Positions 8,944 through 44,349 of a DNA stretch of 64,000 bases are shown here, in pieces. The stretch comes from Anastrepha obliqua. Taxonomy: Eukaryota; Arthropoda; Insecta; Diptera; Tephritidae. The first letter of the stretch is position 1; every line of letters starts with the position of its first letter. The stretch is taken from NCBI RefSeq assembly GCF_027943255.1, contig NC_072894.1, forward strand, positions 73,633,601 through 73,697,600, in the 5' to 3' direction. The notes under the pieces are model-generated. The model searched no databases. It was not told the origin of the DNA and saw only the letters and a list, made by a program, of their open reading frames with translations. Made by a program: the position numbers and the translations under genes.

Positions 8944-9379
8944 CTACCTTTCTGTCTGTTTTTGAGATTCCTTTTGTAAAAAACCGGTTGTGGCATCCTT
9001 CAAATTATCCTTAAGGTTTTCATTGCCATTTTGGAAAGGTTTGCCAGCCTCCTGTAGTTTTTTATCTAAGGCATCGGTCACTAATTCTTTTTTCAAAGTA
9101 GCAATACTTGATGTTGGTTTTACTGATGGGCTTGATATTGGTGTCGAAGGGGGTGTTGCTGGCGCTGGTTTCTCAATCGGTTTTGCTGGAGTTGGAGCTA
9201 CCGGAGTAGAGGTGACGGGTTTTATTTCTGGTTTTACCGGTTTGGGCTCAGGTACTGGTTTATTGTCTGTAATTTTGTTTATTGCTGCTGGTTGTTGCTG
9301 TAGTGGTTGTTCCTTATTTTCGATGGCATTTTTGCCAAGCTTTATATTTAAATTACCGAAAAACCAACCGAAATGTTTT
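8944..9379 (-). CDS. Terminal coding exon of an unrecognised split gene (Pro/Lys-rich protein)
   Basis: On the minus strand a T-rich tract ending TTTTTGTAG precedes an open frame of 145 codons including the TAG stop. The frame opens with one leftover base, so it needs an upstream exon ending with two bases of a codon; the small exon at 31740-31787 ends with AG and supplies Arg. Joined, they encode 159 residues: MFALWYLSFAIDEI, then RKHFGWFFGNLNIKLG (15-30), a Pro/Lys/Thr-rich linker (about 57-103, with repeated PxPxKP patterns) and a charged, probably helical C-terminus (110-150: LKKELVTDALDKKLQEAG, ENLKDNLKDA). The N-terminal hydrophobic/aromatic stretch might anchor it to a membrane, but it is short. 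I do not recognise the family. The opposite strand is also open but is a Gly/Val-rich shadow. Confidence 0.7.
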
Positions 9380-9954
9380 CTACAAAAATTAAAATAAAAG
9401 AAAAAACCAAGGTTAACAATTAATAGTACATTAAAAGTGAATTAATGAAATAAACGCAATTAAAATTATATTAAAATGAAATTTGAACAATAATAATAAT
9501 GTAAAGTGGCAATGAAAACTCTAATCTACCCAGCGAACATAGAGGAATATTTAAAAGGTATCGCTTAAAAATTAATAATAAGCGTAGAGTGTTTTGCGCC
9601 ACTGTATACATGTACATGCACACATATGTACCTACAGTAGTACGAGCGAATAGGAATAAAATAAGTTTTGTTGTTGCTAGAAACATGAGATTTCCGCATA
9701 TATACATGCAATATTCGTTTTGACTCAATAACTTAAGTATAATAGAGTGAGTGAAAAATATTTTTTACTGTAAACAAATTTTACATAATGATGAAATGAA
9801 ATTGAAATTAATCGTGCCATCCATTATTAGATGGTCATACAGCCTTCTATTGCATATACTATATGCATATTTGTAGAGCAATGCTGAAGAGTTTCGTTCT
9901 CTACTCTCTCTTGTTTTGGTTGTAAGAGCCCAAAAACGCTTGTAGTGCTTCAAA

Positions 9955-10210
9955 CTCTAGGATCGTCATCCTCTTCTTTTTTCAGGGCCGAAATGTACTC
10001 CTTGCAGAAGCCTCAGAAGGCCTTTGTATCAATGCCTTATATCCTTCATTCTTCTTTGCGAGTTTGTCAATAATCTCCCTTTTTTCTATGCCAATGTTAC
10101 CCGCTACTTAGAATATCCAAACTTGATTGGACATGCCAAGTGCGTTAAATTTTCTAAGGCTCTCCATCACCAATTTGGAGTTCAGTCTCTAGGGCTCTTA
10201 GCTCAAACTA
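9955..10210 (-). pseudogene. RNase H domain fragment of a non-LTR retrotransposon
   Basis: Read on the minus strand, with stops, the frame gives LGMSNQVWIF, a stop, then VAGNIGIEKREIIDKLAKK. This matches the WVPGHxGIxGNExAD block of the RNase H domain found in jockey/R1/I-type elements. Only this block and some flank remain. Several positions are mutated (H to N, GN to KR), so it is inactive. Confidence 0.65.
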
Positions 10211-10439
10211 CGTAAATGTCGCCATTTGAAATTGAATTAAAATTTTCATTTTCTAAAAGTTTTGTATCTCACTTTTTAATTAACTACCGCATTTGTAAAG
10301 ATTTTTTTAAGGCCAGTTTAGTGATTAATGTTTTAAGATTAAATTGAAAAAAAAAAAAAAATATATATATATACGTGTATAGTATATGTATTTTTTTAAA
10401 TAAAAAATAAGTTATTCCTAAACTGTTGAACAATACACT
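10211..10439. other. AT-rich spacer with TA microsatellite
   Basis: Contains an A-run followed by (TA)n near 10349-10372. Nothing else was recognised. Confidence 0.5.
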
Positions 10440-11230
10440 TACCAGTCAGGTAAGTCGACAGAAACTGCCATACATAGCCTTACGAGCAATATCGAAGAGG
10501 TATGGTTAGAAACGAAATAGATAGACTAATCATGACGTGGGTACTCCTACTTCCATTTTCCAGGCGAAGGTCCACGCCTTAGAGCTGTGTCCAGAGAATG
10601 TCTACGGAGAGGCACGCGCGGTGCCAATATTAACATTCTCTGACAGTCAAAAAGTTTCTCATTCCAATCTGTCTGGGAATGTTTTAAAATCCTCAACACC
10701 CTAGCATCAAGAAACTTTGTTACCTTGATGTGGGTCCCGGGACATGAGGGGCACGAAGGGAATGAAATTGCGAACCCTTTAGAGAAAAAGGGGGCAAAAA
10801 CTCTCTACATAGGCCCTGAAACTTTCTGCGGGGTCATTAACAGCTTCAAAACTGCCTTTCTGCGTGAGCAGGAAAAACGAGGCCTAATCGATTACTGGAA
10901 AAGACTCATAGATCCAGAACGGATGAAGGCAGAAACAATCCTTAACCTAAGAAGAAAGGACATTAATTATCACATGGAAAAGATAGCTGCGATAGAAAAC
11001 GATTCCTGTAGACTCTGCAAAGACGCACAAGAAACAGCAAAACACGTTCTATGGAACTGCCCAGCAGTGGCATGACGCAGACTAAATTACCTGCGAAATG
11101 GGGCTATAGATACAAGCCTCCTGGTATAAATTTAGCCTACAGCAGTTTTAGGATTTATTAAAGCCTAAAACTGTTTGAGTGGCTACATGGCTGCACAATA
11201 GATCTCTTCAGGTGGCAGTGCACAAACAGC
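10440..11230 (+). pseudogene. Non-LTR retrotransposon 3' part: RNase H and zinc-knuckle tail
   Basis: A clean open frame at 10725-11075 begins LMWVPGHEGHEGNEIANPLE, the RNase H motif with the last catalytic block. It ends with a CRLCKDAQETAKHVLWNCP knuckle (C-x2-C-x8-H-x4-C), the usual C-terminus of these elements. Upstream (10560-10720), frame-shifted pieces such as FQAEVHALELC and SDSQK are earlier RNase H blocks. A SRRLNYLRNGAIDTSLL-like tail and probable 3' UTR run to about 11230. The reverse transcriptase is missing. Confidence 0.8.
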
Positions 11231-11461
11231 CGATCAGTATAAATAATAATTATTATTATTTTTAAATTGGTGGCAACGCTGTACCAAATTAACTGTGGCT
11301 TATATATTAATTATACCAAATATATTATATAATTATAATTGCTCCTAAAAAGCAAAAAGTCCATATTAATATTTGAATTAATTTAGTTCATTTCCATTCT
11401 TTAGATAGATATATATATGTTCTATCAAAATAAATCTGGACAATTGCAGCCACACATATAA

Positions 11462-11691
11462 AAGGTGGCGCAAAATTAATCACCCTGCCGGAAGATTTAT
11501 AATTTTTGCAAATGGCATCGAAAGTCAATCATATTTGGCACTTGAGAACTAGACATCTGCGGTATACAAAGAGAAAATCAGTGGAGCGCGTAGAAGTCAA
11601 AATAAAGATTTCCATAAATCAAAACCACATTTTTGTTATTTCGTAAACAAGTTATTAAAAAATAAAATTGGATGGTTATTTTGCGCCACGT
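11462..11691 (+). repeat. MITE of the AAGGTGGCGCAAAATTAAT family (copy 2)
   Basis: The best-preserved ends of the family: AAGGTGGCGCAAAATTAATC at the left and GGTTATTTTGCGCCACGTT at the right, about 230 bp apart. The interior is alignable with copy 1 (ATAATTTTTGCAAATGGC). No open frame. Confidence 0.8.
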
Positions 11692-12260
11692 TGCATATTT
11701 TGCGAAAATCATAATTTGGTATAATGCCAAAATTGTTTACTTCAGAATATAATGAACCGAATGATGAATCCTACTTTAGCCAGCTCTGCGTCAAAAAATA
11801 GTTGAGATTTGTTGTTTTTCATATGTATGTATGTGTACATTTGCGTTCAAGACCTTTTTCACAGCCATGTATGAACGATATTAATTTTTATTTAAGTTAA
11901 AAAATAAAAAAATAAAAAAAATGAGACACCGGCATACGCCGATGCCGTTGGAAAAATAAAATTTTATTCAAAAGAATTCAAAGAGTAAATTTCTGTTTTT
12001 TTGTACACATCCCGAGGATGCTGTCTAGTCACCAGTTAAAATCCCATGCAAATCCAGTCAGTAGTTTCGGAATTCAAGTAGGCGAACAGGCAAACGGACA
12101 GACATAAAAGTAGTCTATTACATTTTCGATGTACAGACACGATTTTTCTACGGTGTTATTATAGTATAGACATGGTTAAAACTCAAGCCAAGTATAATGC
12201 CACAGAAACAGCGAGTTTCTTATATATGTATATACCAGTACTTATATAAAGTATTGTATT
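11692..12260. other. Possible unclassified dispersed repeat; no gene
   Basis: The stretch 12040-12110 (GTAGTTTCGGAATTCAAGTA, GGCGAACAGGCAAACGGACA) has the look of a dispersed repeat tail, but I cannot place it in a family. An inverted GGCATACGCCGATGCC segment is at about 11931. Confidence 0.3.
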
Positions 12261-12511
12261 TAGCCGAGCTCCTCCTCCTATTTGTGGTGTGCGTATTGTT
12301 GTTTTTCTACAAATGGGAGGATTTAAGCCGCCTTTGAAGGGCATTTGTTTTTTTGTGAGGAGCTTCCCAATGGCAGAAATACACTCGGAGGTTTGCCATT
12401 GCCTGCAGAGGTGCAGTCGCTATTAGAAAAAACGTTTTTTATCATTTGGTGCTCTAAAATTGGGTAATCCCTAATGGTAATCACGCGCCAAACCATTCGA
12501 TTACGGCAGCC
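12261..12511 (-). repeat. tRNA-derived SINE, near full length (copy 3)
   Basis: On the minus strand it runs from GGCTGCCGTAATCGAATGGT (degraded box A head) through a box-B region that is mutated, then the GAGTGTATTTCTGCCATT body and GGAGGAGGAGCTCGGC. Box B differs from copies 1 and 7, so Pol III activity is unlikely. Confidence 0.75.
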
Positions 12512-13380
12512 AATTAAATTACTCAGGTCATCAGGTTCGCTATATAATATCACTATAAATCTTAATAAAAACAAGTAAAGAAGGCTAAATTATGTCCGGA
12601 CCGAACTTTATATACTCGCTCACACTTTAGTATAATTGATTTCAAGCTGGCTGTTAGTTTTTGGAATTTTACTACTTTCAACATCAGACTGAAGAACAGA
12701 AACTTAGTTTTAAAATATAAAACAGTGGATGAGGTGTTATCCGATCTCCTTACATCGGATCTAAACAAGCCGTTAAGCCGTTATCGACATTCACTCCAAA
12801 GTGGTCATGGCACCTGGCACTTTCCAACATTTTACTTGCGTCGCATTTATTTTATTGGGCTCCGAATGTGATTAAATTTTCTTGATCGTGTTTTGTTATT
12901 CCTTTTGTGAAAATTACAAATTTTGAAATTTGAAATGAACTGAACGAGTAATAAGTATTGGTATTTTTGGTATGGGTTTTGTCACATAATGACCTATACT
13001 TTTATAAAAAATTAGTGAAGATTAAGCAAATAAAAGAAAAATAGTCAAAACAGTTCAACATCTTGAGGTGCTATTATTTGCTTTACATTTTATTAATTAT
13101 AATTTTTTATATGTATATTCATTTGAATGCTTGGAAATTTTCAAGTTTAAAATTTGTGTAAGAAATATACATATTTTTATTGATTGAACAATTTTCCTGC
13201 ATTTTCGGTTCACATGTATTTATAGTGAAAATACAGTATATGAATTGAAATTAAAACAGAAGCCGAAATGAATTTAAAAGATAAATCGGTAATGACTGAC
13301 ATACATACATATATATGCATATTATCGGAGATTTGCTGAGACTAATCGATTTTTAAATACGAGTACATTTTTTTGCATTA
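12512..13380. other. No gene; possible dispersed repeat at about 12560-12800
   Basis: A segment starting AACAAGTAAAGAAGGCTAAA and continuing TCCGGACCGAACTTTATATA is reminiscent of repeat families in fly genomes, but only one copy is present here, so I do not classify it. The remainder is AT-rich. Confidence 0.3.
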
Positions 13381-15201
13381 GGATGACCCGCAAATGAAAA
13401 AACAGAATTGTTCTATGGCCAAAAAATGTATTAAATATTTCTATGCATTATTTTATTAAATATTTGCGCAGACCCGTCAACACTTCGAAACTTACAATTG
13501 AATTTCCATGAACAAACTGCACTTCTTCGTAGATTTGGTATAAATGTCGATATTATGTAATCTTCTCACTTGATTTTCCCTTAAAAACGTCCGAAAATAA
13601 TCTGTATGCTTTATTACAAAAAAAAAAAAAAAAAATAATTAGAAAATGGAAATTAAAACCGAAAAATGCTTATCTTTTTTTTTGTTTTTATTTTTGGACT
13701 AAGAAATTTTTAAAAACAAAATTACGTATTATTACATTATTTTTAAATGTTTTTGGAATTGTCTAAATAATTTATTGATGATATATGATAACTTTTGCTG
13801 TCTCACCTAGAAAATTCTAGTTTTTTCCATATTTGGAATTTAGTGTATAGTGTATATAATGTATATATATATATTTTTAAGTCCATAGGGTTAAATAAAA
13901 AAATGTTTATAAATAAAATTTTTTTGTTCAAAATTTTGGGATAAATTTTGTTTTGCTTCATTTTTGATATCCTCCCAGTTTTTGTTTTCTTGTTTTGGTT
14001 CTTGTTAGTAATAGTATAGACTACTCTTGAAAATTCCTCCAAGTTGCATAATAGGATTCCCATAACTTTTCGAGTTATGTATATTCAAATATGTACAGCA
14101 AATCAATGAAAAATCAGTGCAAAATACTACTCTAACGAAGCGATTATGGATACAAGGTTTAGCCAATCTGTTATCGTAAAAACGAAATTGAACGAGTAAC
14201 TTCGGCTGTCAGTCACTGGAGACTCGGCAGCAGAATTCTGCCGGCTCATTTCACACGTATTCACACACTTGTCCAATCAGTCGATGTTCAGACGGCAACG
14301 AAGTAGTAGGAGAGGTTGGCTGTACTAATTTTTTTCGTATATCACCAACAGAATTTTACATATTACGTAAAGAAACCCCTGTCAAATCCCCTGTTACGTC
14401 AGAAAATCAACTGTTTCTTTGAAATTCGCTGAGAGTTGGTTAAGCCTGATTTTGTCCACACCTCTAAAATCTTGTCACCATGCGTGCTCGTATATTACGT
14501 CCGTTTGCAATTTGTCGCTACGTACATACGTACATACATTAATAAAAAATAATAATTTTCAAATAAATTTCCAAAAACAAAAATATAATATTTGCCAATT
14601 TTTTTTTCACACTACATGTTATGCAAAAAATATTTTTTTGTTTAAATGCTTAAAAGAACTAAATATATTTTACTTTTAAAATCTCTATACCAAAATTTTC
14701 AACATTGAATAAATCTCAATATAATAAAATTGTTTTTGATTTTTTTCTTAGTTTACTTCTTACTGTACTCAAGTCTACAACCAGTTTATAGAAGGATTGA
14801 CGACAATGTCCAAAATACTTGGATCTCTTGATATGGCACCGTTTATATATTAAAACTGTAAGTAATATTTATCAATATATTGTTGCATTAAAAAGTAATA
14901 TATTTAAAATTGTTTTTTTTATTACTTTTGTGGAAGTATACATATAAGTATAAAAGATAGTTTAAATACTTTTTTTTAATAAAGCATAGATTAATATTTT
15001 GTTTTTATTCAAAATGTATAAATATTTTGTATCAAATTTACGGAAAAGTGCATATTCCTTCATGAGAAATTCAATTATAATTTTCAAAGCGTTGGCCGCC
15101 CGAGTAAATATTAAATAAAACAATAGGAACCTAACTTTTTTTTAGCCATAGAGCAAATTTTAGGGGCAGCATCAAGAAAAAAAATTTTTATCGAGTCATC
15201 C
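13381..15201. mobile_element. Candidate 1.8-kb TA-flanked element with GGATGACYCG ends
   Basis: The left end is TA followed by GGATGACCCGCAAA. The right end is TTTATCGAGTCATCC followed by TA. The two match as inverted repeats over about 10 bp with one difference. The interior is strongly AT-rich with poly-A runs and holds no recognisable transposase. Short ends make chance pairing possible. A segment at 14290-14410 resembles 18540-18660. Confidence 0.3.
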
Positions 15202-15203
15202 TA

Positions 15204-17279
15204 ATGTGCATACACGTATATATGCATATTAATGGATAATAAATAGGTAATTATGTAAGACTTTTAAAATTAATGCATGTCGAACCCTTTTCCTGTCAAT
15301 TCTGCTATAACAAAAAACAAAAACCATATCGGCGGCAAGATACACATTAGTTCAGTTAGTAATAAAAAATAAAAATTTTGTTCAGATTGCGCTGTTTCCC
15401 ACTTGTTGAGGCCGTGCAATGCTCATTTCGTCACATGATTTAACGAACTTATTTTCACTGTTAGGCAATTAACCACTTGTTGTCGATCTCTTTTTTGTGT
15501 CTACATTTGCACAATGCAGGCATGTATGTGCCCATATTTATATACATACATACACAAATTTGCAAATGTGCTAACAATACGAAAAACTGCAATCACTCGC
15601 TATGACAGTTAATCGTAAAAGTTGTGTCGGCATACATATCGATGTAGATAGGCGTGGATATTTATATAAAATAATAAATGTGCACAAGCTTATGGCGTTA
15701 GATGAGTAATAGAAGTACCCGGTAAGCACCTTTTATATGAATACACTGCAAGGTTCGCACGTCAGCCGAGAAGTTTCGACGGTCTGATAATAGGGCTATT
15801 CGTTTCGCCAAGCGTTAATAAGTGGCGAATAGATGAAGTGACTGGTATAAATAAACATATCTGGGTATCGCTGGAATAGGGCTGTCTAAAATTACATTTG
15901 CAATTACAGCGAATCTTGCTCGACAGCGTTATTGTTGCTTTCGCATGCAATTTTTTCGTCAAGTCGTTCGTTTTTAGTCAAGGCGATCGAAATCGAGCTT
16001 AATTAAATAAACGATTGGAGCAATATCCGTTTTCTTCTAGGCAGAAGGGACTTGAGGGGGGGCATCGCGGGTGTTCGGTTACTTTTATAATATACTGAAT
16101 TTGTAGAACACGTATGTATGTAAATAAAAGGATTTTTCGATATTCCCATTTGTTAGGAATTTCTTGCGAATAATATGAGTTTTTCCTGAAGCACTGTTTT
16201 TTTAAATTGACTGTCATTATAACTCGAAAACTTTTCAACGCATTCCCAAGTTTATACGACATATTCCTTTCTTATATGCGCAAAAAATAAAATTGCAAAA
16301 AAAGGATTAAAGTTTGAAAATTTGAAAGATCCCAGACGAATTTCGTTATGTCTAATATTTCACATATTAAATTAAAAAAAACTAACAATCTTTTAACTTC
16401 AAACGATTTGAATACTAGCTATGGTGGCATCCGCATTAGTGTTTTTTTGAGTGATAAATGAGATGATAGTAGATACTCATGTTTTTTAAGACATTTCATT
16501 AAAGGACGAGGATAATTTAGTAGATTTCGTTTAACTTAATTTGACCCCCTAGTCTTTCACAAAATCAGTTCATGGTAAGGGTTTAGCGATAATTTCACAT
16601 GTCGCGCTGCAAAAGTATCAGTATTCTAATAAAAAAAAACCTTGAATAGGATCCAAGCAAATAAAGCATATGGTTCTGGAAAAACGTAGGCACCTTAACT
16701 TCTGTTTTGAACACATTTTTACCTCACAATTTGGTTTTGCATTCTTACCCTTTTACGGACACCAACCAGCCTACCTGCAGCTGCATTCTACTGGCAGACG
16801 CAGGAGAAGATTCACCAGAGTAAGTTTTCTACTTTAGCCTGGGTACTTTACGGGAGTGGGAAATTCTGAGCTGCTTGAACCGTATGCAAAATAATGACCT
16901 CTGGTCACTCTTAGGCGAATCGCAGTTAGAAACATTGTCCACTTGCATGAACTTTTGGGCACGGAATTAGCGCAACCGGAAACTTTTATAGTGAAAAAAT
17001 TCATGTGTATGTTAAGACTCATTTTTCTTAAAGAGGATCTGGAAAAATTTAATTTTACTTCGTGGAGATGATGATGAGAAATAAAGTGAACAGCTTATTT
17101 CTATTACTGATGCCTTAGTATTTACATAAACGTGTATACTTACATATATTTGTAATTACTTGCTTGAATTGATTTCATTGATTACTTGAAGGTATTGTAT
17201 TAAACAAGTCAAATCTTATAGAAAATGATAGAAACGGTTTTTTCTAAAGCGCTCGCCCTCCGCCGCGAGTGCATTTCAA
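15204..17279. other. No gene seen
   Basis: AT-rich with a slightly GC-richer patch at 15760-15990 that contains no convincing exon. No repeat family member was recognised. Confidence 0.45.
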
Positions 17280-17390
17280 CCATGGAAAATCCCTCATTAA
17301 AAGCCATCTGCCGTTCGGAGTAGGCAAAACTGCAGGCTCCTCCAGTTGAGGAACAATATTGACATAGACATCACACATTGGAGAAGGAGT
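17280..17390 (+). repeat. tRNA-derived SINE fragment (copy 4)
   Basis: Only the body and part of the tail remain: CATGGAAAATCCCTCATTAA, CATCTGCCGTTCGGAGTAGG, then TGAGGAACAATATTGACATA and GGAGAAGGAG. It aligns with the plus-strand orientation of copies 2 and 6. The head and last tail bases are missing. Confidence 0.65.
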
Positions 17391-18116
17391 CTATTAAATG
17401 TGGTAGCGGAAAGCCAGCTGATTTTGGTTTTGATTTTTTTTCCTTTCACCGTATAAATTCGGATGTCGGCACAAAATGTAATTACGAAACGTATTACTTA
17501 CATTTGTGATTTGAAAACGGAAATTTTGTAAAGAATTTAAATTCAAAAGTTATTATGAATATTTTAAAAGCATTTCAACACGACAAATAAATTGATTTCT
17601 TTCTTCTATTTTGCCTTCACAAATAAATCACTTGTTTGTTTTATAATTTGACGTGACATTCTAATGTACAAAATGTTGTTGTTGGCCTAATGCCACCGCC
17701 TTTAGTGAATTCGCCTTGGTATCACTTACATATATGCAAATTGGTTTTTGTTAAAACTATTTACAATATGTGACAAAAAAAAAGAGTTTTGTCCTCGATA
17801 AAAAACAATAAAAACGGTAACTATTTGGTGGTAGCAATAATTTTTAAACTTTATACATTCATTTCTATTCATAACGTAACAAAATCTGAACCTCGAGGAA
17901 AAAAATGTAAAATTTCGGGGAAGACAAAACAAAAAACCCATAGGTTATGGTAAAATCAAAACTTTTTCGTCATCAAACAAGCTTAAAATAGGACTAAATT
18001 TCCATGCTACAAATCGGACAGTTCGATACAGGTTGGTAGAAGCCGGATTATTAGCAAAACACACAGAAGAGTACCGTTGTTGAATTTACAGAACAAAACA
18101 AAAAGGCTTCAATTCG
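17391..18116. other. No gene seen
   Basis: AT-rich DNA; a 71-codon minus-strand frame at 17726-17941 is Phe/Asn/Tyr-rich and shows no motif. Confidence 0.5.
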
Positions 18117-18311
18117 CGTCCGAATGGCAGATGGTTCGTTATGAGGAGGTTTTCCATGGTAGAAATACACTCGGAGGTTTGTCTTTGTCTGCCGTGGGGC
18201 GGACGCTATTAGAATATAACTTTTCTGTCAATTCGTGTTTCGTGCGGGCTTCTAACCTGTGCACTTCCAAATGGTAGTCATTCACCAACCCATTCGGATA
18301 CGATGTCCGCC
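18117..18311 (-). repeat. tRNA-derived SINE, 3'-truncated (copy 5)
   Basis: On the minus strand it begins GGCGGACATCGTATCCGAAT with a box-A-like GGGTTGGTGAATGACTACCA and a weakened box B (CAGGTTAGAAGCCC), then the GAGTGTATTTCTACCATGG body. It stops after GCCATTCGGA, losing the tail. Confidence 0.7.
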
Positions 18312-18970
18312 TTTGCAATTACTAGGTGTACATTTTTCCTTCTTGCATTTATGAATTGCTGGCAAAACAAAAAAAAAAAAAAAAATTAATTGGTCGTATT
18401 TTGTGCCAAATCGCTCATCGAATAATTTTTCCTAATTTTCAGTGTTGTTCTGCAATGCGTGTGAAGTCAATGAAAACCCATGGTGAGGATTTTTAGAGGT
18501 GTGCTCTTTAGCAGACCTTTATTCGGCTTTGAGGGAATTTGACGTGGCAGCCGTCTGAAGTAACGAAGTGTTATTGTGTTAATTTTTTTGTATATCACAC
18601 GTATAACACATTCTTAGTTTTTTGGTAAAAAGTCGATTCTGTCAAATCTTTTCATAATGTAGTGCCTCTACCATTTTCTTGGTGCGAGTTCCTCGATATA
18701 AAGATGAACTAGCATCGTTGTTGTCTTCATTTTAATATTCAGGACAATCTTAGAACAAGGTGAGATTAATTTTTATGAATGGTAATTTTAAAAACTCTAC
18801 TAGATTTCATAATTCCCCAAAATAGATAATTCTATTCATGCATCGAAATCTTATGGAACAAAACTCGACTTATGTACAAACATAATTAGCGCGGGAAAAT
18901 GCCCTGTTATGAAGTACATAATATCACGAGTTCATGAAGAACATATTCGTATCCAACTTCATCTACATAA
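18312..18970. other. No gene; segment similar to 14290-14410
   Basis: TTTTTTTGTATATCACACGT and TCTGTCAAATC at 18585-18650 resemble a segment at about 14330-14390 (TTTTTTTCGTATATCACC, CTGTCAAATC), and both are preceded by a GTCTGAAGTAACGAAGT / CAGACGGCAACGAAGT-like stretch. This is probably a shared old repeat. Confidence 0.3.
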
Positions 18971-19810
18971 AAGGTGGCGTAAAATTAATCATCATAATTT
19001 TGTTGCTGAATAACTTTTTTACTAAATAAGTAAAAAGAAAAAAAAATGATTTGAATGACGGAAATCTTTATTTTGACATTTAGGCGTTCCGTTGCGTGTA
19101 TGTTTGTATACTGTAGCTCTCTAGTCCTCAAGTTTCAATTAACGTACGACGCCATTTACAAAAATTATAAATCTTCCGATATAGTCCGGGAGCCAGGGGT
19201 CATTTTGACCTCATCATTTCATACCGACTGATTTTAATACTGAAGGCAGACGCCATCCAATGGATAACGAAACCAACCGTAAGCTGGTTCAGTAGCGGTC
19301 GGTACGTGTCGAAAAAAAATTTTTAACAACTCATTTAATACCGACTGACATTTTTTTGTGTGTTGTTGACATTTAGTAGAATAAAAAAAATAGTCAGCTG
19401 CGCCGTAGAGTGGGGAAAATACGTCAGCTGAACAGGCGAACTTGTAAAATAAATTAAAAAGTAAAACTACTTTATGCCGATGGAAATTTCTTTACATAAT
19501 TTTGGACACATATGAAGATATAATAATGATGGTCAGCTACGTTTATAGCGGTGGGAAGACCGGCAGCCAAAGCATTGAAAATTCCGCGCACCGCCGAGAT
19601 GTATGAAAATGAGTTGATAGAAATTTTTTTTCGACACGTTTCGTACCCTCCCACAATCACATCCACCGCGGGTGCGCCAGCTGACGTTCACTTTCGTTAT
19701 TCATGAAATCTAAATCACAAGTATAGTCAAGAATTTAACGGTATAAAAACGCAGTCCAAAATCGACCCCTGGCTCCCGGACTAATAGGATGATTAATTTT
19801 ACGCCACCTT
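18971..19810 (-). repeat. MITE of the AAGGTGGCGCAAAATTAAT family (copy 3), split by another element
   Basis: The left end is AAGGTGGCGTAAAATTAATC and the right end GATTAATTTTACGCCACCTT, a near-perfect inverted pair. The interior (TAAAAATTATAAATCTTCCGATA) is broken at 19183 by the 598-bp element and resumes at 19784 with ATAGGATGATTAAT. Without the insert, the MITE would be about 240 bp, matching the other copies. Confidence 0.85.
19184..19781. mobile_element. 598-bp DNA element with 18-bp perfect inverted ends, TA-flanked
   Basis: It starts GTCCGGGAGCCAGGGGTC and ends with the exact complement GACCCCTGGCTCCCGGAC; similarity continues for several bases with one indel. TA flanks both ends and is the target duplication, because the interrupted MITE reads across it. 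Inside, a second inverted pair (GTGTCGAAAAAAAATTT near 19307 and AAATTTTTTTTCGACAC near 19622) and a repeated CATTT(C/A)ATACCGACTG motif occur. A 64-codon minus-strand frame (19472-19666) has no recognisable family. The superfamily is unknown; TA targets suggest Tc1/mariner-like or PIF-like mobilisation. Confidence 0.8.
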
Positions 19811-20598
19811 GTACATGCATGTGCATATGGGATTATGTTTTCATGGCTATACACTTGGTACACTAAACCCTTTTTTCGAACTTCGTTCAACTTATATCAT
19901 TCTGCTTTTTAATGTTAATTGGGTATAAATGTACCAGACACACATATGTATGTATGTGGGTATATAGATGTGAATGTGACTTGCACAATCATGTACCTGT
20001 GTTTGCCTACCTGCACTCTTTTGTTGGTTAATTAGCACAGCAACTAACTTTATTAAAATTTTGAATAATTGTTTGCGATTAGCAAATGTGTTAGTAAAAT
20101 TTAAGAGAATGACAACAACAAGAAATATGGAATAAAAGAAGTTTGGAGTACCCTCATGAACTTCTGGAAATATGAGAATTTGCAATGCTTGTTTTTTCGA
20201 TCAACCAAGAAATGGTCTACGTGACAATGTCGGTGTACGGGGGAATTTCTAATACACTCTTGGATCTACAAAGCAATCACGATTTGGCATATTCTCAATT
20301 AGTGTGTAGGTGACTGTATACAAATATGTATTAACGTACACTCATATAATTGTAAATAAAAATGTGTTAACGATTGCAACGATTCATATGTACATATATT
20401 GTACACATGAACTCATTGGGTAGGATTACATAATTCGTTAATGGATCTGAACTTTTGCATATACATATGTACATATGGAATGGGAATGTTACGTACATAC
20501 ATACGTGGAATTTCATGTAATTCACATATAAGTAGATGTTCTACTTTTTCGTGCTTAACTCCCAATCCGCAAATAAAAAGCGAGATTTCCCGTACAAT
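19811..20598. other. No gene seen
   Basis: AT-rich spacer with TACATATG-type microsatellite motifs (about 20390-20480). Nothing else was supported. Confidence 0.5.
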
Positions 20599-20630
20599 AT
20601 TTCTCTCCCAAAATCTGAGATTATAAAATA
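20599..20630. repeat. Left arm of a 32-bp perfect inverted repeat
   Basis: The arm begins ATTTCTCTCCCAAAATCTGA; its exact reverse complement lies at 21756-21787. Weaker similarity continues outward (CGTACAATATT against AATTTTGTATGG). The arms are 1.1 kb apart and enclose SINE copy 6 and a short coiled-coil-like frame. Confidence 0.85.
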
Positions 20631-21315
20631 ACCCTTTTTGTCAAAGTGTCGAATACTTGCTGTGGGGGCGAAAATATCTGCGTACGAAGCTTAACATTGA
20701 TTTTAAAGTCGTTTCGATTGACGATTATCAGTTGAGGAGATATTCAGTTACATACATATGTACATATATGTATTTACATATATATGTTTTTTTCATGCAG
20801 TATAAAAAAAAATTTTATTTGTTCAATGTATCCACCTAACTCTTTTAACACCGCATGCAATGGTTGTCTCCATTGGCGGTATATTGTCTGATAAATTTAT
20901 TAAGATCAAAACTTTAGTTTGTGGAAATGTGGGGTAAAGTATCTATCAGATCTTGTCACTTTCATTGAAAAATCCTGTTGACTAATTAGGTTGCGTTTGA
21001 TAACTCAAAAATTTGTAATAATTATTCCCAATTTTTGCAATCCACCACTGTAAACTTGGGAGGGTAAAGTGGCAGTTCGATGCAAGAGAGATGTTCATTT
21101 CGTGCTCGAGAAATTTTAGCCATCAAAAATTATCTATCACGAGGACATATGATATGGTATGTATGTATGTACGTTCACATATGCATTAACTACCAATAAA
21201 TCCACAAAATTAATCTACCCACATATGGCAATCAGTTGTGAAAGTTTTTTTTTCATATAAATTATTTTGGTGGAATATTTCGGTGTTTTTGGTTTGTTTA
21301 ATTATTACTAACGAT

Positions 21316-21471
21316 ATGAGAAAAATACAAAGAGAAGAAATAGCTTATTTAATTGCGCAATTGGCTGCTAATAATAAACAGTTGGAAGAAATCCGTAAGC
21401 GACGTTTACTGAGGTTGCAAAAAATTATGGCAGAAATACGCATGTCGTTCGGAGTCGGCTTGAAACTGTAG
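21316..21471 (+). pseudogene. Short coiled-coil-like ORF cut by a SINE
   Basis: From an ATG at 21316 the frame reads MRKIQREEIAYLIAQLAANN, then KQLEEIRKRRLLRLQKI, then runs into SINE sequence and stops at 21471. The Leu/Glu/Arg-rich start resembles the beginning of some transposase or regulatory proteins (for instance PIF/Harbinger-like), but the match is too short to name. The real C-terminal part would have been displaced by the SINE. Confidence 0.3.
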
Positions 21472-21560
21472 GTCCCACCATTTGTGGAACAACATCAAAA
21501 CGCACACCACCAATAGGAGGAGGAGCTCGGCCAAACACCCAAAAAGGGTGTACGCGCCAT
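21426..21560 (+). repeat. tRNA-derived SINE, 5'-truncated (copy 6)
   Basis: Starts at ATGGCAGAAATACGCATGTC in the body and continues GTTCGGAGTCGGCTTGAAAC to the best-preserved tail of the family (GGAGGAGGAGCTCGGCCAAA, then AAAAGGGTGTACGCGCCA). It lacks the tRNA-like head. Confidence 0.8.
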
Positions 21561-21755
21561 TTATGGACACATGATTTTTTCTGTAAAGTGAATCCATAAT
21601 TAATAATATTTATTAATATTATAATTTACAGACTTGTTTTCTTTGCCTGCGTCCATTTCATTCAGTTTTTATTTTGATGTTTATCCTTACATTCGTAATA
21701 ATAATTATCGATAATACAGGGTTGAATGTCAAAAAGTATGATTATCATCTAGGAT

Positions 21756-21787
21756 TATTTTATAATCTCAGATTTTGGGAGAGAAAT
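21756..21787. repeat. Right arm of the 32-bp perfect inverted repeat
   Basis: Begins TATTTTATAATCTCAGATTT and is the exact reverse complement of 20599-20630. Confidence 0.85.
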
Positions 21788-22623
21788 TTTGTATGGAAAC
21801 GTATTATAAATGTCTATTATTGCCCTTTTTGTAAACAAACAAATTTATTTTTTGAGGAATCTGGTATTTGTGCATATTTGCTTAGGTTTGAAATTCGCAG
21901 TTTATAGTCATAAAGGATAAAATGGAAAAGTTATCAATAAAAAAGGTAGATACATATGTACTTATGAATATAAAATATATTTATGCTATTTGGCAAGTGA
22001 TGCCAAATTTTCCGTTCATTAACTATTTTGCTATTATTTTTGGGAGAGTATTTTCGCCTACGCTCTTGATTTGGATTGATGGCTGGTAATGGCTAATTTT
22101 GTTGTCGCACACAACTTTAGTGTCCAAAATTTCTTGTCGCGCCAAGACTTGCACAATATTAGCATTCGTTGGTTTTTACGAATGTGCATTTGTGACTATC
22201 CGCAACATTCCTAGTGTGTACTTAAGTATGTGTGTATATGCGTATACAGTTCTCACACAATTTATTCGTATACCCTGCGTAGTACGTAAAAAACTTAAGC
22301 TTTGCGCAAAATATTATATTTGCTGTGACAACACATACATATGTATGTATATTTACATACATATGTATATTACTTTAAGAATGTTACATTCCTGATGAAT
22401 TACCGCAAACAAAACTCCCATTATTTCAACTCACACTGAATGGTTCCAAGGAAAGCAGGCAGATGTCGCAAAATGCAGCAAAAGTTTTATTCGTACGCTT
22501 TGTGTTTTTACTAACATTGCTGAAAACGAAAAAATATTTGTTTTTCTTAGTTTTTATCAGCGATGCAGTTTCAGTTGCGCGTAATATATTATCTATGCGT
22601 AATATCTCGCTTGAACGTGACAA
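21788..22623. other. No gene; microsatellite near 22336-22375
   Basis: Contains a self-complementary ACATACATATGTATGT tract. The open frames here show no family resemblance. Confidence 0.5.
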
Positions 22624-23385
22624 ATGGGACGAAGTGCGGATTTACCACTAGAAATGCGTAAAATTGTAATTGAATTGTGCTTTGAAAACAAGTACCTACG
22701 CGAAATTGATACAAAGTAGGCTAAGTGTTATCGCTAATTAGGTTAATACTGGTAACTTGGAAGCTAATCACCACCAAGCCGGAAGGCGAAAAATATTGAC
22801 TCCACGTGAGGAACACAAAGTAGCATCAGTTGCGCAAAATCCCAAAATAATCTCAACGATACTATGCCGAAATATTCAAGTCTTTAGTCTTTGCTTAAAA
22901 GCGTAAGCCCACAACAAGTGCGTAATTGCCTGTAGAACGCTGGTTATTATAGCAGAGTGACACGCCGCAAGCCCTACATTTCGGATATTAATAGAGAGAC
23001 GAGATTGAAGTTCGCCAAACGCTATATAAATGAGCCAGATTCTTTTTGGGAAAACGTCACATTCAGTGATGAGTCGAAATTTAATGTTTTCGGATCAGAA
23101 GTCCCTCCAAACGTTGGAAAGAAGATACTTATTTTTTTATATTTATCTTATACCTACCGTTAATCAAGAAGGAGGAAATGCAATGGTTTGGGGGTGCATT
23201 AGCTGCATCTGGGGTAGGAAAAATAGTTTTTATTGATGATAAAATGGACAAACATCTGTATTTAAACATTTTGAAGAACAATTTGCATGATAGTGCCGAT
23301 AAACTTGGACTGGATGTTGAAGGGTTCTTGTTTCAATAAGACAATGACCCCAAAACGCTCATCTTATCTTGTGCAAGAGCGGCTT
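22624..23385 (+). pseudogene. Tc1-like transposase (Bari/S-type), degraded
   Basis: ATG at 22624 opens MGRSADLPLEMRKIVIELCF, the N-terminal helix-turn-helix of a Tc1-family transposase. It then decays through stops in the second DNA-binding region (QQVRNCL, YYSRVTRRKPYIS). A catalytic block with the first Asp follows (VTFSDESKFNVFGS at about 23060). After a local rearrangement come MVWGCISC, FIDDKMDKHLYLNILKNNLH and DNDPKT (second Asp; the usual following His is replaced). The third catalytic block is missing. Tc1 enzymes use a DD34E triad, so this copy is dead. Confidence 0.85.
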
Positions 23386-23662
23386 ATTTACCATTTTTAT
23401 TTGGTTTACCTATATGAAAACATTTTCTCGTACCGACATATTGTACATATGTATGTATGCCCATATGTACATTTTCTTTGGTAGGGGAAGGCCCGAAATA
23501 CAAAATTTTTTCGCCTCGCATAAACAATTGGTTCAATAGAAAAGGTGTATTGTGTCACTTTTGATAAATAAGTATGTATGTACCTATGTATGCGCGTATG
23601 TATGTATTATACATACATAAAATTCCATTGAATATCATTTCCGTGGAACTTTATACAATTTT
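23386..23662. other. Spacer with TATG microsatellite
   Basis: GTATGTATGTACCTATGTATG and similar units at about 23568-23625 lie between two transposase remnants; the 5' end of the following mariner is not recognisable. Confidence 0.55.
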
Positions 23663-24363
23663 TATATGTCTTGTGTGAAAAACGAAATTAAGTGCGCGGA
23701 TGCATTTCGAATGTTGACTGTGTCATACGGAGAAGCTAATTTGGACCAAAGCAACGTTTATCGGTGGTACAAAATGTTCTCAGAAGACCGAGAAGATGTG
23801 AACGACGAAAAGCGTGCCGTACGCCCGAACATTTCAACAACAGACGAAAAAATTGATGAAGTGAAGAAAATGGTATTGGCCAATCTTCATATCACCGTTA
23901 GAGAAGTTGCTGAACACCTAGACATATCGATTGGCTCGTGCCATTTGATTTTTTTCAATGATTTGGGCATGAGACGGGTCGCCGCAAAATTCGTACCAAA
24001 ACTGCTCTATTTCGCCCAAAAGCAGCACCGCGACGACCCAAATTTGCTCCAGAGGGTCATAACTGGTGACGAATCGTGGGTTTATGGTCATGACGTTGAA
24101 TCTGGCGCCCTGTGACTTTTTCTTGTTCCTGAAACTGAAGAGGCCCATGAAAAAACGACGCTACGCTACGATTGACGAGATAAAGACGGCGTCGAAGGAG
24201 GAGCTGAACACGATAAAAAAAATGATTTTTTGAAGTGCTTTGGCACAAGTGCATAATATCTCATGGGGATTACTTTGAAGGGGACAAAATATATATTAAT
24301 GAATAAATAAATAATTTTAAAATAAAAAACACAAAATTCGCGATACTTTTTGAACACACCTCG
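23663..24363 (+). pseudogene. Internally deleted mariner with 3' terminal repeat
   Basis: An uninterrupted frame of about 149 codons reads CVKNEIKCADAFRML, NVYRWYKMFSEDREDVND, VREVAEHLDISIGSCH and VITGDESWVYG (first catalytic Asp). It then jumps after HDVES directly to LAPCDFFLFLKLKRPMKKRR in another frame, the region just after the last catalytic Asp. The middle of the core is therefore deleted. The protein tail (TIDEIKTASKEELNTIKK, then CFGTSA) and the 3' terminal motif TTTTTGAACACACCTCG are present, the same terminal motif as the mariner ending at 4005. The 5' inverted repeat was not found. Non-functional DD34D family member. Confidence 0.85.
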
Positions 24364-29411: not shown

Positions 29412-29832
29412 TGTGTATGTACACATAGCTATGGGCATAGAAATAGCGCACTCTTAGTATCCTCTATACGAATTGTTATTTCTTAGAATATTAATGTTTA
29501 TTCGTACATATGTTTGTATTTCTATACCGATGTTATGCTGAGAGTAGTGATCTCTAATATCGGGCAATGTGCCCTGCCAACTTTTTTAATGCTTCCTTTT
29601 GCCATGTTACACTCAAATCGCTCAAAGCGCAATAATATTTTAATCATTAGTTAAGCTAATTAAAGTTAATTCTCTCGGTAAATTCTTGTTTGTTGTAATT
29701 GCAAATATAATTTTTTTCCTTTAAAAGGAGGACCTCACTGCTTACTTGAAAAGAAAAACATAATTTGTGACCTTTACGAAAGGGGTACAAACAAACAAAA
29801 TTTGCAAAAATATCGAATTATTCACGTAAAAT
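29412..29832. other. No gene seen
   Basis: AT-rich spacer between two Tc1-type copies. Confidence 0.5.
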
Positions 29833-30340
29833 GGAATATGATACTTTTTACAGACTAAACTAAAATTAATATGATTGGTCCTGATGCTAAGACTTTAGTT
29901 CATCGTGAAAAAAACCAAGAGTTCAATCCCCGGTACACAACAAAACCATAAAGCACGGTGTGGGTAACTTGAATGTTTGGGTATCATTTTCTTTTAATAG
30001 AGTTCTACCAATAGTGGAAATAAATGGCATTAGGGATAAGTTTGCTTATCTTGATATTCCCAAAAATACGATGGAGCCATATTCCTTTGAGTCCATGCCA
30101 CTAAGCTGGTTATTCCTGCATGACAACAATAGGTTTGTGCAGCAAAAGTGGTGTAAAATTAGATTTTCAAAGAAAAAATGACAGTTCCGGAATGGCCAAC
30201 ACAAAGCGTCGACCATAACCCTTTTGAAAATCTGCGGAAGGATATTAAGGTGAAGGTGAGCAAAAAAAAGTTTAAAAATGCCAATGAACTATGGCAAGCA
30301 ATACAATCTATTCCTCTGGAGAGATGCAAACGTTAATAGA
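29833..30340 (+). pseudogene. Second Tc1-like transposase fragment (different subfamily)
   Basis: Frame pieces in order: VKWNMILFTD, stop, TKINMIGPDAKTLVHR (first catalytic Asp in FTDETKI, with the Glu codon now TAA). Then GNLNVWVSFSFNRVLPIVEI, PYSFESMPLSWLFLHDNN (second Asp region, HDND to HDNN), WPTQSVDHNPFENLRKDIKV (the SPDLNPIENLW block with the catalytic Glu) and IQSIPLERCKR. N-terminal DNA-binding domains and ends are missing. Sequence differs from the adjacent 27819-29411 element, so it is a separate insertion. Confidence 0.8.
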
Positions 30341-30415
30341 AAATTTATTTCACATGTGTTAAGCAGTTTTAAAAAATAATGGATAATGAATAATACTAAT
30401 CAGTTTAGTATTTAA

Positions 30416-31068
30416 GGAGAACACCACTGTGAACGCGTGAAAATTAAGTGATTTTCATGAATTTTTTTTTATGTAGGAATGATTATTTGAGGATCGGACA
30501 AATTATAATTTATTTAATTAACATATAATATATTCAACTATAATGACACAAATTTGAATTAAAAAAAATTAAAAATTAGAATTGTTATTAATATTAAAGC
30601 AAAACTTCATAAAAAACTGATGAACCCTGGTGGCCACGATACAGCGGCGAAAAATCATCTGAAAGCAAAAAACCAAAAAAAAAATCTTAATCTATACATA
30701 AATGGCTATCGTCGTACGTTGCTGTTTTCGAAAGGCTTGAAAAAATATTAATTTTTGGAATTTTTAAAAACGGCTATGTATGATTGTAACCAATACATGT
30801 ACAAAAATTAAAAAAAAAAATTAAAATCGGTTCATAAGTCTTCGAGAAATCGAGGCCACCGTGTTCAGAAAAGTCGTTTTGAGAAAAACGCGTTTAAAGT
30901 TTTTATTGGCCGTTGTAACTCACTACCTCCACGTATTGGGTATAATTTCGACAATTTTCAAGATTTTAAGTTAAAATTTCTTTTACATATTTTTGAATAT
31001 ATCTACTTTAAGAAAATGCAAAACACAAAAAATCGATTTTTTTTGAAAAATCACAGAGGTGTTCTTTG
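30416..31068. mobile_element. TTAA-flanked non-autonomous element A (piggyBac-like ends)
   Basis: TTAA at 30412-30415 is followed by GGAGAACACCACTGTGA; the right end has TCACAGAGGTGTTCT at about 31051-31065, its inverted partner with one mismatch, but the right TTAA has been lost. The interior contains CGAGAAATCGAGGCC and AAAAATCGATTTTTTTTGAA motifs also seen in the elements at 33855 and 49922. No open frame. The TTAA target is typical of piggyBac elements. Confidence 0.6.
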
Positions 31069-31099
31069 GAGAAAAAGAAGTCCATTATTTTTACGCAAA

Positions 31100-31330
31100 C
31101 GGTTTAAAACTGGTCAACTTCGATTATTTCTGTGATTTATCGACATTTTCTTTGACATCCAGAATGGCTGAACGGAATGGACGAAACCAAATTGCACGTA
31201 ATTAGCAGTTACACCATAAGCACTATTCACAATTTCAGCAGCCTGGCTTGTATTTTCGTCTTTATCAAAGAAAAACTGTAAAATGTATCTAATTTTTACA
31301 TTTGTTGACTTCCATTGTTAACACCCTCTC
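31100..31330 (-). pseudogene. mariner transposase N-terminal fragment
   Basis: Minus-strand reading, with frame changes, gives FFDKDENTSQAAEIVNSAYG, VTANYVQFGFVHSV and ENVDKS. This matches the N-terminal helix-turn-helix block of mariner transposases (KAAEIVNxVYGxxxVTANYVQFWFRRF). It is a different subfamily from the mariners at 3551 and 23663. No ends or catalytic core were found. Confidence 0.65.
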
Positions 31331-31739
31331 TCTCATAACAGAATGGAACGAACAAAAAGAGCAAAATAATTTTTTTAGTGTGAAGTGTCACCTTGACAAC
31401 AAGCATAAACTTTAAATTGTTTGATCGAAACATTACGAGATTTTTTATTGGGGGAAGTGCGCTATTTTCTTATGCATAGCTGTATGTATATATATATGTA
31501 TCTAGGTATATTATTGGAAAAAGTCATCCAATGCAAAATGGTTTAATCAAAATGAACTAAATTAATCAGTAATCACATTATTTATCTTTAAAATTAGCTT
31601 ATTTATGCTAACAAAATTTCATTTGTATATACATACATACGTGTATAGGTATGTATGATATGCGTGTATGTAGTGAAAACAAGGCTTGCCGTTCTGCTAT
31701 ATATTCTAATTTTAGGAGTTGCAATTTATATGTACTTAC

Positions 31740-31787
31740 CTTATTTCATCGATGGCAAAAGACAAGTACCACAACGCAAACATTTTT
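31740..31787 (-). CDS. Start-codon exon of the split gene (44 coding nt)
   Basis: On the minus strand a T-rich acceptor (TATATTTTTGCAG) ends at 31788. The exon then has four untranslated A residues, ATG at 31783 and 14 codons (MFALWYLSFAIDEI) plus AG, and ends at a consensus donor GTAAGTACA. The AG remainder completes an Arg codon with the first base of the exon at 9379, giving IRKHFGWFFGN across the join. Only 4 nt precede the ATG here, so an upstream non-coding exon is required; a candidate lies at 44269-44349. The match of start codon, phase and both splice sites is the evidence. I cannot name the protein. Confidence 0.6.
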
Positions 31788-39582: not shown

Positions 39583-39644
39583 TATATAATCGATTGATTG
39601 AACCGATAAGCTTAAACACCGAATCGTGAAGAATCAATTAAAAA

Positions 39645-40520: not shown

Positions 40521-40578
40521 TATTTCAGATCAGCCATTGATTTCCTCTTTCATAAAATCAGCTTTAAAAAATAGATAA

Positions 40579-41654: not shown

Positions 41655-42125
41655 GGGATTTAGTTTGGCGCATTGTCCCAGGCTGTCGAAAAAAGGGGAA
41701 TCCAGTGAGCTTAATCATCTAGCTGACAAACCCGGACATTTACAGGGAAAGTACTCACAATCTCCTTCTCTCAAAGGTCTCTCAGCTTCTGCAATGGGGT
41801 TTAAATGGTAAACCTAAGTTTTGTATGTCGATCGTCCAATGACCGGTAAATACAGCTACGAGTTTGAAAATTGAATGACGTGAAGTCTCCAGGACTTTCT
41901 GAATCTTCCCTCTATTGTACTGCGGCCAAAGGGTATTTGAAATACTGCATGGAGAAATGGAGCAACATCTTTTTTGTGCTTTCCTGAGAAATAATTTGTA
42001 CAGTTCCCCTTTAATAACTGTCAGTGGGATGCCGATGATCGGGGCATCGGGCCGATGACTGAGGCTAATTCACTCGCCTTCCTGGCAAGCTCATCAGCAA
42101 TTTCATTTTCCTAAATGTCGAAGCT
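41655..42125 (-). pseudogene. Non-LTR retrotransposon 3' part (RNase H end and C-terminal knuckle)
   Basis: Minus-strand pieces in order: NEIADELARKASELAS (the GNExAD block of RNase H), LKGNCTNYF, GRSTIEGRFRKS, LYLPVIGRSTYKT, HLNPIAEAERPL, and EGDCEYFPCKCPGLSAR (knuckle). This is the usual order in I/R1/jockey-type elements. Several frameshifts; inactive. Confidence 0.7.
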
Positions 42126-44268
42126 ACTTAGAAATATATTTTAGCGAGCCCTAACCGCCATAACCGCGAAAAAATATTGGATTTTCCGTTTTTGATAGAA
42201 ATCGATCCCTCATACAAACAAGCTGCCCTACGAAATACCGTTCCGTTACAAACTTATGACGAAAGCAATTTTGGCTTAAGTGTAAAATTTACTTGTTGTC
42301 GGTTTCGCCCTTTTGGCGGTTAATGATCGACATCTAACATATTTTAGGTTGTTAGACACCATAACAACCTCGACGGTCTCGATGAGGAAAAAGCTCATTA
42401 AAACCAGTCGGCAGTATACTGAAATAAAGGAAATATTTAATAATGTTGGGTAACTATTAAACAGGAGATATGTGCGAAGATTTAACTATTCATTTATAGC
42501 TTGTTAAGCAAGTTGAAACTAGTAACTTTATTTCAAACTGGATCTTTTGCGATTTAAAAAAAAGGACATTAAAAGAAGACTGGACCAAATTTGTTGAATC
42601 AAGTTATGGATGGGGCTGTCATTTTTTTAAATATTTGTACTGTTGGAAACGCCATTTTCGTCCACAGTGATTATTGTAGAACCATCACTTTCCACACTTT
42701 GTAAAATTGGCAATATTTACTGTGGACCACCTTGAGTTTCAGAAGGTTGATACGCCATGCTACACAGATCATCAAACTATCGATATTTCGCAGATCGCAG
42801 ATGCAATATGAATACATTCGATTCTCTTGGATTCAAAAGAAGTTGAGGCGAATGTCAGTTGAGCCATTTATGAGATGGGGTTGGAAACCGTTATTAAAGT
42901 TTAGAAAATTTGGGTTCATAGAATGTACTATTGCGAGTTGATAGTCCTGCAGCTAAGGCTCATAAATTATTTAAATTGTTAATTCATCAAGTTTTGTTAA
43001 TAATAATAATGAAGTGATTATATTTCACTTATATAGCTTTAAAAAGTAATATACTAAAATTAATTGGTTTTTGATAATTTTTTTTGTTTAAAATATTTCA
43101 AACTGGATTACTCCTTAAAAGCTCACACGCAGGCATTTTTTCGACTTCATTGTTTTAGTACCGGATTCAGCAAAGCAAAAATGGAACACACGGGAAACCT
43201 CTTAACAAATTGTTGGTCACCAACGGAGCAAAAAACTCATTTTTTTCCAAAATTTCTTTTTCCGCAGGGCATGTCGCATGTGTATTAGTCAGAGCCATTT
43301 CGTCTGAACCGCATGATTTTATCACAAATGAGACCTACCCAAATGCGTACTTGCATATGTTTGTACGTACATACATGCATGTAGATGGGTCCGTGTGTAT
43401 ATATATACATATATGTATGTGCTCATATATATTAAATCAAAAACAAACAAAAGTCACGTAAAATCAATTTTTAAACAATGTCGTTAACTAATGCTAGCGA
43501 TGTGATATCTAAGCTAATAAAGAAAAGTCGGTCACTTTAATTCAGAATTGACGTCTAATTACATGTGTTATAAGCGTTTATTGTCAAAACAAAAAAAAAA
43601 AAAAATACCCCTGTTATGTTACGTCATCAAAGGATGAGAAAAGCAGTGAGTAATTCTGGCGAAATCATAATAGTTGCATATGCATATGTATGTATGCAGA
43701 TGCTATGTATGTATTTGCCATGTGTATCCAACACTGCACTCACCTGCTATCTCTCAAAAATTTTCATTACAATAAAATATTTTCCACTCTCTTACAATTT
43801 TTCTCTTTACTAACTTTTTAGTTCTGTATTAACTTTTGGTATTTTTGCACCAGTAGTTTTTTCACAATAGTCAATTTTCGTTGGTTAGCCTTTCTACATA
43901 TGTACATACATATAAATATGTGTATTTGTAATTTGAAGATGACAATTGATAATAACATGTTTTTGTAATTGATTTAACACTTTCCCCCAACCACTTGTAA
44001 TAGATTGTTAACGTTTATAAGTAATGAATATGCTTTCTACCGAATGTACATCAGAGATATGTGCATGTACATATGCATATATATAAGTGTATATCGTTAA
44101 TGGATATTTTAATAACACTAACCACATTTATTTGTTCGATTCCGCACTCAACAAAAGGCTTGTTTCATATGTAGCGTATCACATGTAGCTCTTTTTGCGT
44201 CAATACTGCTTAATTACTTATTGTCGTTTAGAATATAAATTTTTTACTAATTTTTACGTATAATTTAC
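42126..44268. other. No gene seen; microsatellite near 43370-43430
   Basis: Short frames at 42732, 43064 and 43210 show no motifs. The 43360-43430 stretch is a CATG/TATA-rich microsatellite. Confidence 0.45.
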
Positions 44269-44349
44269 CTGTTTCACTAGACTAATAACAATTTTGGTTT
44301 ATAACAAATTTTTCGTGCTCGCGTTTTCTTCGCTCAACGGCAACAAAAT
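44269..44349 (-). other. Candidate 5' UTR exon and transcription start of the split gene
   Basis: On the minus strand TCATTT at 44351-44346 fits the insect initiator (TCAKTY). The following 80 nt are less AT-rich (GTTGCCGTTGAGCGAAGAAA, ACGCGAGCACG), contain no ATG, and end GTGAAACAG before the donor GTAAATTA. This is the shape of a fly first exon. It would splice to the acceptor at 31788, which needs exactly such a non-coding exon. The link is inference; another promoter may serve. Confidence 0.35.

What the first reader, a model, noticed from the sequence alone, without database searches (positions are those of the whole stretch)
8944..44349. A host gene split across about 35 kb of transposon debris, with a 44-nt coding start exon
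Minus-strand exon 31740-31787 (ATG, 14 codons plus AG) and exon 8944-9379 (one leftover base, 144 codons, stop) have consensus splice sites and complementary phase, giving a 159-residue protein I do not recognise (aromatic N-terminus, Pro/Lys linker, charged helix). A plausible 5' UTR exon with initiator and donor sits at 44269-44349. Standard gene callers would probably miss the tiny start exon.
Basis: partly seen in the sequence, partly recalled or inferred. Interest (0 to 1): 0.75.

Follow-up and report, generated by a model that had tools for sequence, protein, structure and literature searches.

The report
Fruit-fly arginine kinase's front exons
The tiny start exon and the second exon are real, but they are the front end of a well-known energy-buffering enzyme, arginine kinase, whose catalytic part lies about 43,000 bases further on, outside the window; the Drosophila counterpart of this start exon is already published as a mitochondrial address tag.

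Summary
The 48-nt exon (31740-31787, minus strand) and the next exon join as proposed. However, the "stop" TAG (8946-8944) overlaps an intron donor, GAAAG|GTAGAAT. The exon is 9379-8948: 432 nt, phase 2 at both ends. It joins in phase to an exon 42.6 kb downstream, outside the window (G000:C3:73599970-73598887), that encodes a complete 356-aa arginine kinase. The joined 519-aa product matches 517 of 519 aligned residues of Anastrepha ludens "arginine kinase 1 isoform X2". A Rhagoletis zephyria protein ending at the same place is named "alpha carbonic anhydrase 8-like". Phlebotomus papatasi ArgK1 isoform X1 has the same first 16 residues. In Drosophila the homologous exon-1 peptide (14 of 16 identical) suffices to send a fluorophore to mitochondria (PMC13215054). 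Best explanation: the mitochondrial isoform of ArgK1 in a tephritid close to A. ludens, with the intron between the two front exons about 11 times longer than in Drosophila. The 5' UTR exon (44269-44349) is plausible but untested. Known gene, known mechanism; interest is low, apart from the annotation trap and the constancy of an unusual targeting peptide.

The parts
31740..31787 (-). Start exon (48 nt): 4 nt of 5' UTR, ATG at 31783-31781, 14 codons plus AG; codes MFALWYLSFAIDEI and two bases of R15
   Evidence: Sequence and splice sites; same residues contiguous with exon 3's in P0001 and P0005
8948..9379 (-). Second coding exon, 432 nt, phase 2 at both ends (frame-neutral): KHFGWFF start, Pro/Lys-rich linker, charged helix
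   Evidence: same extent in A. ludens P0005
8944..8947 (-).
   Evidence: P0005 continues ...QTERKLNIMVDAA across this point; kinase exon acceptor in the same phase 42,577 bp downstream
9380..31739 (-). Intron between the two front exons, 22,360 bp
   Evidence: transposase/reverse-transcriptase-type fragments at 10644-11072, 23621-24112 and 28290-28649 (matches below curated cut-offs)
1..8947 (-). Window part of the 42,577-bp intron leading to the catalytic exon, which lies outside the window at G000:C3:73599970-73598887 (locus L005)
44269..44349 (-). Candidate 5' UTR exon of the distal promoter (unproven)
   Evidence: Initiator-like TCATTT and donor CAG|gtaaat; 1 of 5 such patterns in the window

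Best explanation
The exons belong to the arginine kinase 1 gene (ArgK1) of a tephritid fly very close to Anastrepha ludens. Transcripts from a distal promoter splice the 48-nt start exon to the frame-neutral 432-nt exon and then to the catalytic exon (519 aa), or, as in Drosophila isoform RE, straight to the catalytic exon (375 aa). By homology with Drosophila ArgK1-RA and -RE, the N-terminal peptide MFALWYLSFAIDEIRK takes the kinase to mitochondria, and the Pro/Lys-rich exon serves as a spacer, so that phosphoarginine can be charged where ATP is made. Shown here: the DNA structure, matching phases, an annotated A. ludens isoform with the same structure, and conservation of the peptide. Shown by others in Drosophila: targeting by the exon-1 peptide. 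Inferred: use of the exons in this species, existence of the 375-aa form here, the spacer role, the distal promoter.
For: Exon 2 + exon 3 (ending at 8948) + the downstream kinase exon give one open 519-aa frame; 517 of 519 aligned residues equal A. ludens arginine kinase 1 isoform X2. The kinase exon has PF02807 and PF00217 above cut-off and matches solved arginine kinases over residues 1-356. P. papatasi ArgK1 isoform X1 has the identical first 16 residues. In P0002-P0004 the likeness ends at ER, just where the donor lies, and no stop follows at once (P0003 and P0004 are near-identical, so these are about two independent cases). Drosophila: peptide MFALWYLTFAVDEIRK of ArgK1 exon 1 suffices to bring a fluorophore to mitochondria (PMC13215054 section 24); 14 of 16 residues are the same.
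Against: No transcript of this species was available. The exon 3 donor GTAGAA lacks the G at +5 of the usual consensus (recalled). The R. zephyria protein P0001 ends at the very residue before the TAG, as it would if the stop were used. The peptide has net charge 0 in its first 16 residues and low helical moment at its start, unlike the usual positively charged presequence (recalled). The P. papatasi match of the extension as a whole has E = 4.5; it counts only through the identical 16 residues and the kinase.
Confidence: 0.95

Rival explanations
1. The 159-aa protein is also made as such: the weak donor is skipped, the TAG is used, and the transcript ends in the intron, giving a kinase-free peptide that could compete for the mitochondrial site.
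For: The frame with TAG is there; R. zephyria P0001 ends at the same place; the donor is weak; an ATTAAA lies at 8909-8904. In Drosophila the exon-1 peptide fused to a fluorophore without the second exon made mitochondria round up.
Against: P0001 comes from a 53,883-bp contig, while here exon 2 to the kinase stop takes 66,501 bp, so that model may simply not reach the kinase exon (inference). P0002-P0004 do not keep the stop.
Confidence: 0.07
2. An independent tephritid gene for a 159-aa protein of unknown kind.
For: Open frame, splice sites, and the R. zephyria predicted protein of the same extent.
Against: A. ludens and P. papatasi proteins join this N-terminus to arginine kinase; Drosophila ArgK1 begins with the same peptide; the kinase exon lies downstream on the same strand in matching phase.
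Confidence: 0.02
3. Chance open frame and splice-like sites in non-coding DNA.
For: The splice pattern of exon 2 is met by 4 places in the window.
Against: The two parts, 22,360 bp apart here, are contiguous and conserved in other species' proteins.
Confidence: 0.005

Closest known systems
Anastrepha ludens arginine kinase 1 isoform X2 (P0005, 522 aa)
   Same: 517 of 519 aligned residues, including the whole front part and the kinase
   Different: Three more residues (QQP) in the linker and two substitutions
Drosophila melanogaster ArgK1 isoforms RA and RE (PMC13215054)
   Same: Exon-1 peptide 14 of 16 identical; a second exon whose stated coordinates give 561 nt, also a multiple of three; last exon catalytic in every isoform
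   Different: Intron between the two front exons 1,996 bp by the stated coordinates against 22,360 bp here; second exon 561 against 432 nt. The Drosophila protein itself was not fetched, so the linkers were not compared
Phlebotomus papatasi arginine kinase 1 isoform X1 (P0006, 571 aa)
   Same: First 16 residues identical; KDAT-FL-ES motif before the kinase; closely alike kinase
   Different: Linker longer and mostly not alignable; residues between linker and kinase differ
Rhagoletis zephyria 'alpha carbonic anhydrase 8-like' (P0001, 165 aa)
   Same: 76% identical over the whole 159-aa stretch, same N-terminus
   Different: Ends where the TAG is here, without the kinase; its name fits no result here (no Pfam family on the 159-aa product)

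Membership tests
Arginine kinase (ATP:guanido phosphotransferase) | N- and C-terminal ATP:guanido phosphotransferase domains | tested here: met
   PF02807 (109.8 bits, cut-off 25.7) and PF00217 (268.6 bits, cut-off 22.4); the domains are in the exon outside the window, joined by phase
ArgK1 mitochondrial isoform (Drosophila RA/RE type) | Start exon coding MFALWYL(S/T)FA(I/V)DEIRK | tested here: met
   14 of 16 identical to the peptide printed in PMC13215054
ArgK1 mitochondrial isoform (Drosophila RA/RE type) | Frame-neutral second exon that can be skipped (RA with, RE without) | tested here: inconclusive
   Exon 3 is 432 nt, phase 2/2, and skipping it keeps the frame (375 aa); whether it is skipped in this species was not testable
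ArgK1 mitochondrial isoform (Drosophila RA/RE type) | Localisation to mitochondria | not testable with these tools
   Known for Drosophila only
ArgK1 of Anastrepha | Annotated isoform with the same exon order and sequence | tested here: met
   P0005, 517 of 519 aligned residues
Carbonic anhydrase (name given to the R. zephyria protein) | Carbonic anhydrase domain | tested here: not met
   0 Pfam families up to E = 10 for the 159-aa product

The most novel reading that the evidence does not exclude
MFALWYLSFAIDEIRK is a receptor-specific mitochondrial address: uncharged overall, aromatic, and kept letter for letter between a sand fly and tephritids while the next exon diverges freely. Such constraint suggests one fixed protein partner on or in mitochondria rather than the loose physical code of ordinary presequences, and the exon next to it would be a tether whose length varies.
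Probability: 0.4. Interest if true: 0.45.

Novelty: already known. Interest (0 to 1): 0.22.

Why it matters
It corrects a truncated gene model of a kind that also stands in public annotation under an unrelated name (R. zephyria), and shows how a stop codon overlapping an intron donor can mislead. The near-perfect constancy of a short, uncharged mitochondrial targeting peptide in the flies seen here makes its receptor a testable question; the gene and the targeting role were already described in Drosophila.

Tried and rejected
Pfam (E up to 10), PDB sequences (E up to 1) and Rfam gave no match for the 159-aa product or the window, and ARAGORN found no tRNA. The exact string of the first 14 residues occurs in 0 papers of the library; the shorter FALWYL in 1, the Drosophila paper. 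A profile search with the 159-residue alignment found only the same 4 proteins among 7996 scored candidates, because candidates are limited by length; searching the front part at the length of the whole 519-aa protein found the kinase isoforms (2 of 490 candidates). Structure prediction of P0001 had low confidence (mean pLDDT 57.5, pTM 0.17; helices 2-33 and 113-159), so no fold search was made.

Rejected: an independent unknown gene; a chance frame. Neither confirmed nor rejected: the 5' UTR exon. PMC13215054 gives coordinates of 54 nt for the Drosophila first exon, about 10 nt more than a 44-nt coding part; so short an exon makes a further upstream non-coding exon likely there (inference), but says nothing of its place here.

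Papers: of PMC13215054 I saw the abstract and outline, section 24 in full, and passages found by term. All other papers were seen as search listings only. A paper of Munneke and Collier on one Drosophila gene for cytoplasmic and mitochondrial arginine kinases is recalled, not seen; one search lists 6 papers, one of which (PMC5443511) contains the name Munneke. Claims about what is in print rest on these searches only.

Full report
Observation. The minus strand holds the two exons. Exon 2 (31787-31740) reads tttgcag|AAAAATGTTTGCG...GAAATAAG|gtaagt, and exon 3 starts at 9379 after tttttgtag. A pattern scan of both strands for such mini-exons gives 4 in the window, 2 in the right phase: suggestive, not decisive.

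The junction. A protein search gave 4 hits at E <= 1 among 366 candidates. P0001, a Rhagoletis zephyria prediction of 165 residues, is 76% identical over the whole query, and its first 15 residues equal those read across the junction. The two parts lie 22,360 bp apart in this window, so their adjacency in another species is not chance. The other 3 (P0002-P0004, no species shown) are frames that run out of sequence unlike exon 2 through ...FFR|KHFGWFF, as an unspliced frame with the same acceptor would.

The stop. In those 3 frames the likeness ends at ER and they read on for 3 to 5 residues that differ. In the window the bases there are GAAAG|GTAGAAT; a donor there puts the exon end at 8948, the exon then being 432 nt and in phase 2 at both ends. 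P0001, in contrast, ends at that ER, as with a stop.

Downstream. I fetched 50 kb beyond the window's low end and 10 kb beyond its high end. On the minus strand one open frame codes a complete arginine kinase behind an acceptor ttctttcag|AAAATTAAACATCATGGTT in the phase needed. Exon 2 + exon 3 + this exon give 519 residues, exon 2 + this exon 375, its own ATG 356. It matches PF02807 and PF00217 above cut-off, and solved arginine kinases over residues 1-356.

Relatives. Searching residues 1-164 of the 519-aa product at its full length gave 2 hits at E <= 10 among 490 candidates. The first is Anastrepha ludens arginine kinase 1 isoform X2, E = 2.3e-96; over the full length 517 of 519 aligned residues are identical. 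The second is Phlebotomus papatasi arginine kinase 1 isoform X1, E = 4.5 for the front part, but with an identical first 16 residues and a KDAT-FL-ES motif before the kinase. From the A. ludens likeness I infer that the window is from an Anastrepha or a near relative. P0001 is best read as a truncated ArgK1 under a wrong name: its longest contig is 53,883 bp, while here exon 2 to the kinase stop takes 66,501 bp.

Function. PMC13215054 reports that Drosophila ArgK1 is alternatively spliced, that isoforms RA and RE contain a first exon with peptide MFALWYLTFAVDEIRK, and that constructs with this exon, with or without the second, go to mitochondria; with the first exon alone mitochondria rounded up. 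The window's peptide is the same at 14 of 16 positions. From the paper's coordinates I compute 561 nt for the second exon, also a multiple of three, and 1,996 bp for the intron between, against 432 nt and 22,360 bp here. The likely mechanism is placing of a phosphagen kinase at mitochondria by choice of 5' exons, with a flexible spacer. The model of P0001 has helices at 2-33 and 113-159 with no structure between, at low confidence. The peptide has net charge 0, unlike ordinary presequences (recalled).

Introns. Of 8 window frames scanned with Pfam, 5 matched families of transposase, reverse-transcriptase or helix-turn-helix type, 1 of these above its curated cut-off (Transposase_1 at 39799-40575); 1 was an F-box frame and 2 had no match. 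Four of the 5 lie in the gene's introns, one upstream of the candidate exon 1. Within the 124 kb examined, 2%, 12% and 14% of the three introns are repeated; genome-wide copy numbers were not obtained.

The 5' UTR exon at 44269-44349 stays open: its pattern occurs 5 times in the window, it is not repeated within the 124 kb, and no transcript or relative DNA was at hand.

Verdict. A good reading of a real gene that is already known: tephritid ArgK1 with the front exons of its mitochondrial isoform. Worth keeping are the TAG overlapping a donor, which matches the truncated R. zephyria model, and the constancy of an uncharged targeting peptide.

Noticed in passing
L005:7450-7610 (G000:C3:73601050-73601210, minus strand): A further possible alternative start exon of the same gene: MGGCASKDKK... 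ends in phase 2 at GAAGG|GTGTGTAT and joins in frame to the kinase exon. MGGCASK looks like an N-myristoylation start (recalled pattern), which would make a third, membrane-bound form.
   Followed up: partly
P0001 (Rhagoletis zephyria): Public protein named 'alpha carbonic anhydrase 8-like' appears to be a truncated arginine kinase 1 isoform.
   Followed up: yes
window 60647-62896, minus strand: A multi-exon F-box protein gene upstream of this gene; F-box-like domain above cut-off in the first coding exon.
   Followed up: partly
window 39799-40575, plus strand: Mariner-type transposase fragment of 259 codons with Transposase_1 above cut-off, inside the proposed intron between exons 1 and 2.
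   Followed up: partly
window 384-999 and L006 about 1994-2641: 78% identical stretch shared with a reverse-transcriptase-like frame 48 kb beyond the window; the RT likeness is by eye only.
   Followed up: no
L006/L005 border (window coordinates about -43000 to -39300, minus strand) and L007 (64596-65953, plus strand): Neighbouring frames that look by eye like a Nopp140-type Ser/Lys-rich protein with RGG end and an Oxa1/Cox18-type protein.
   Followed up: no
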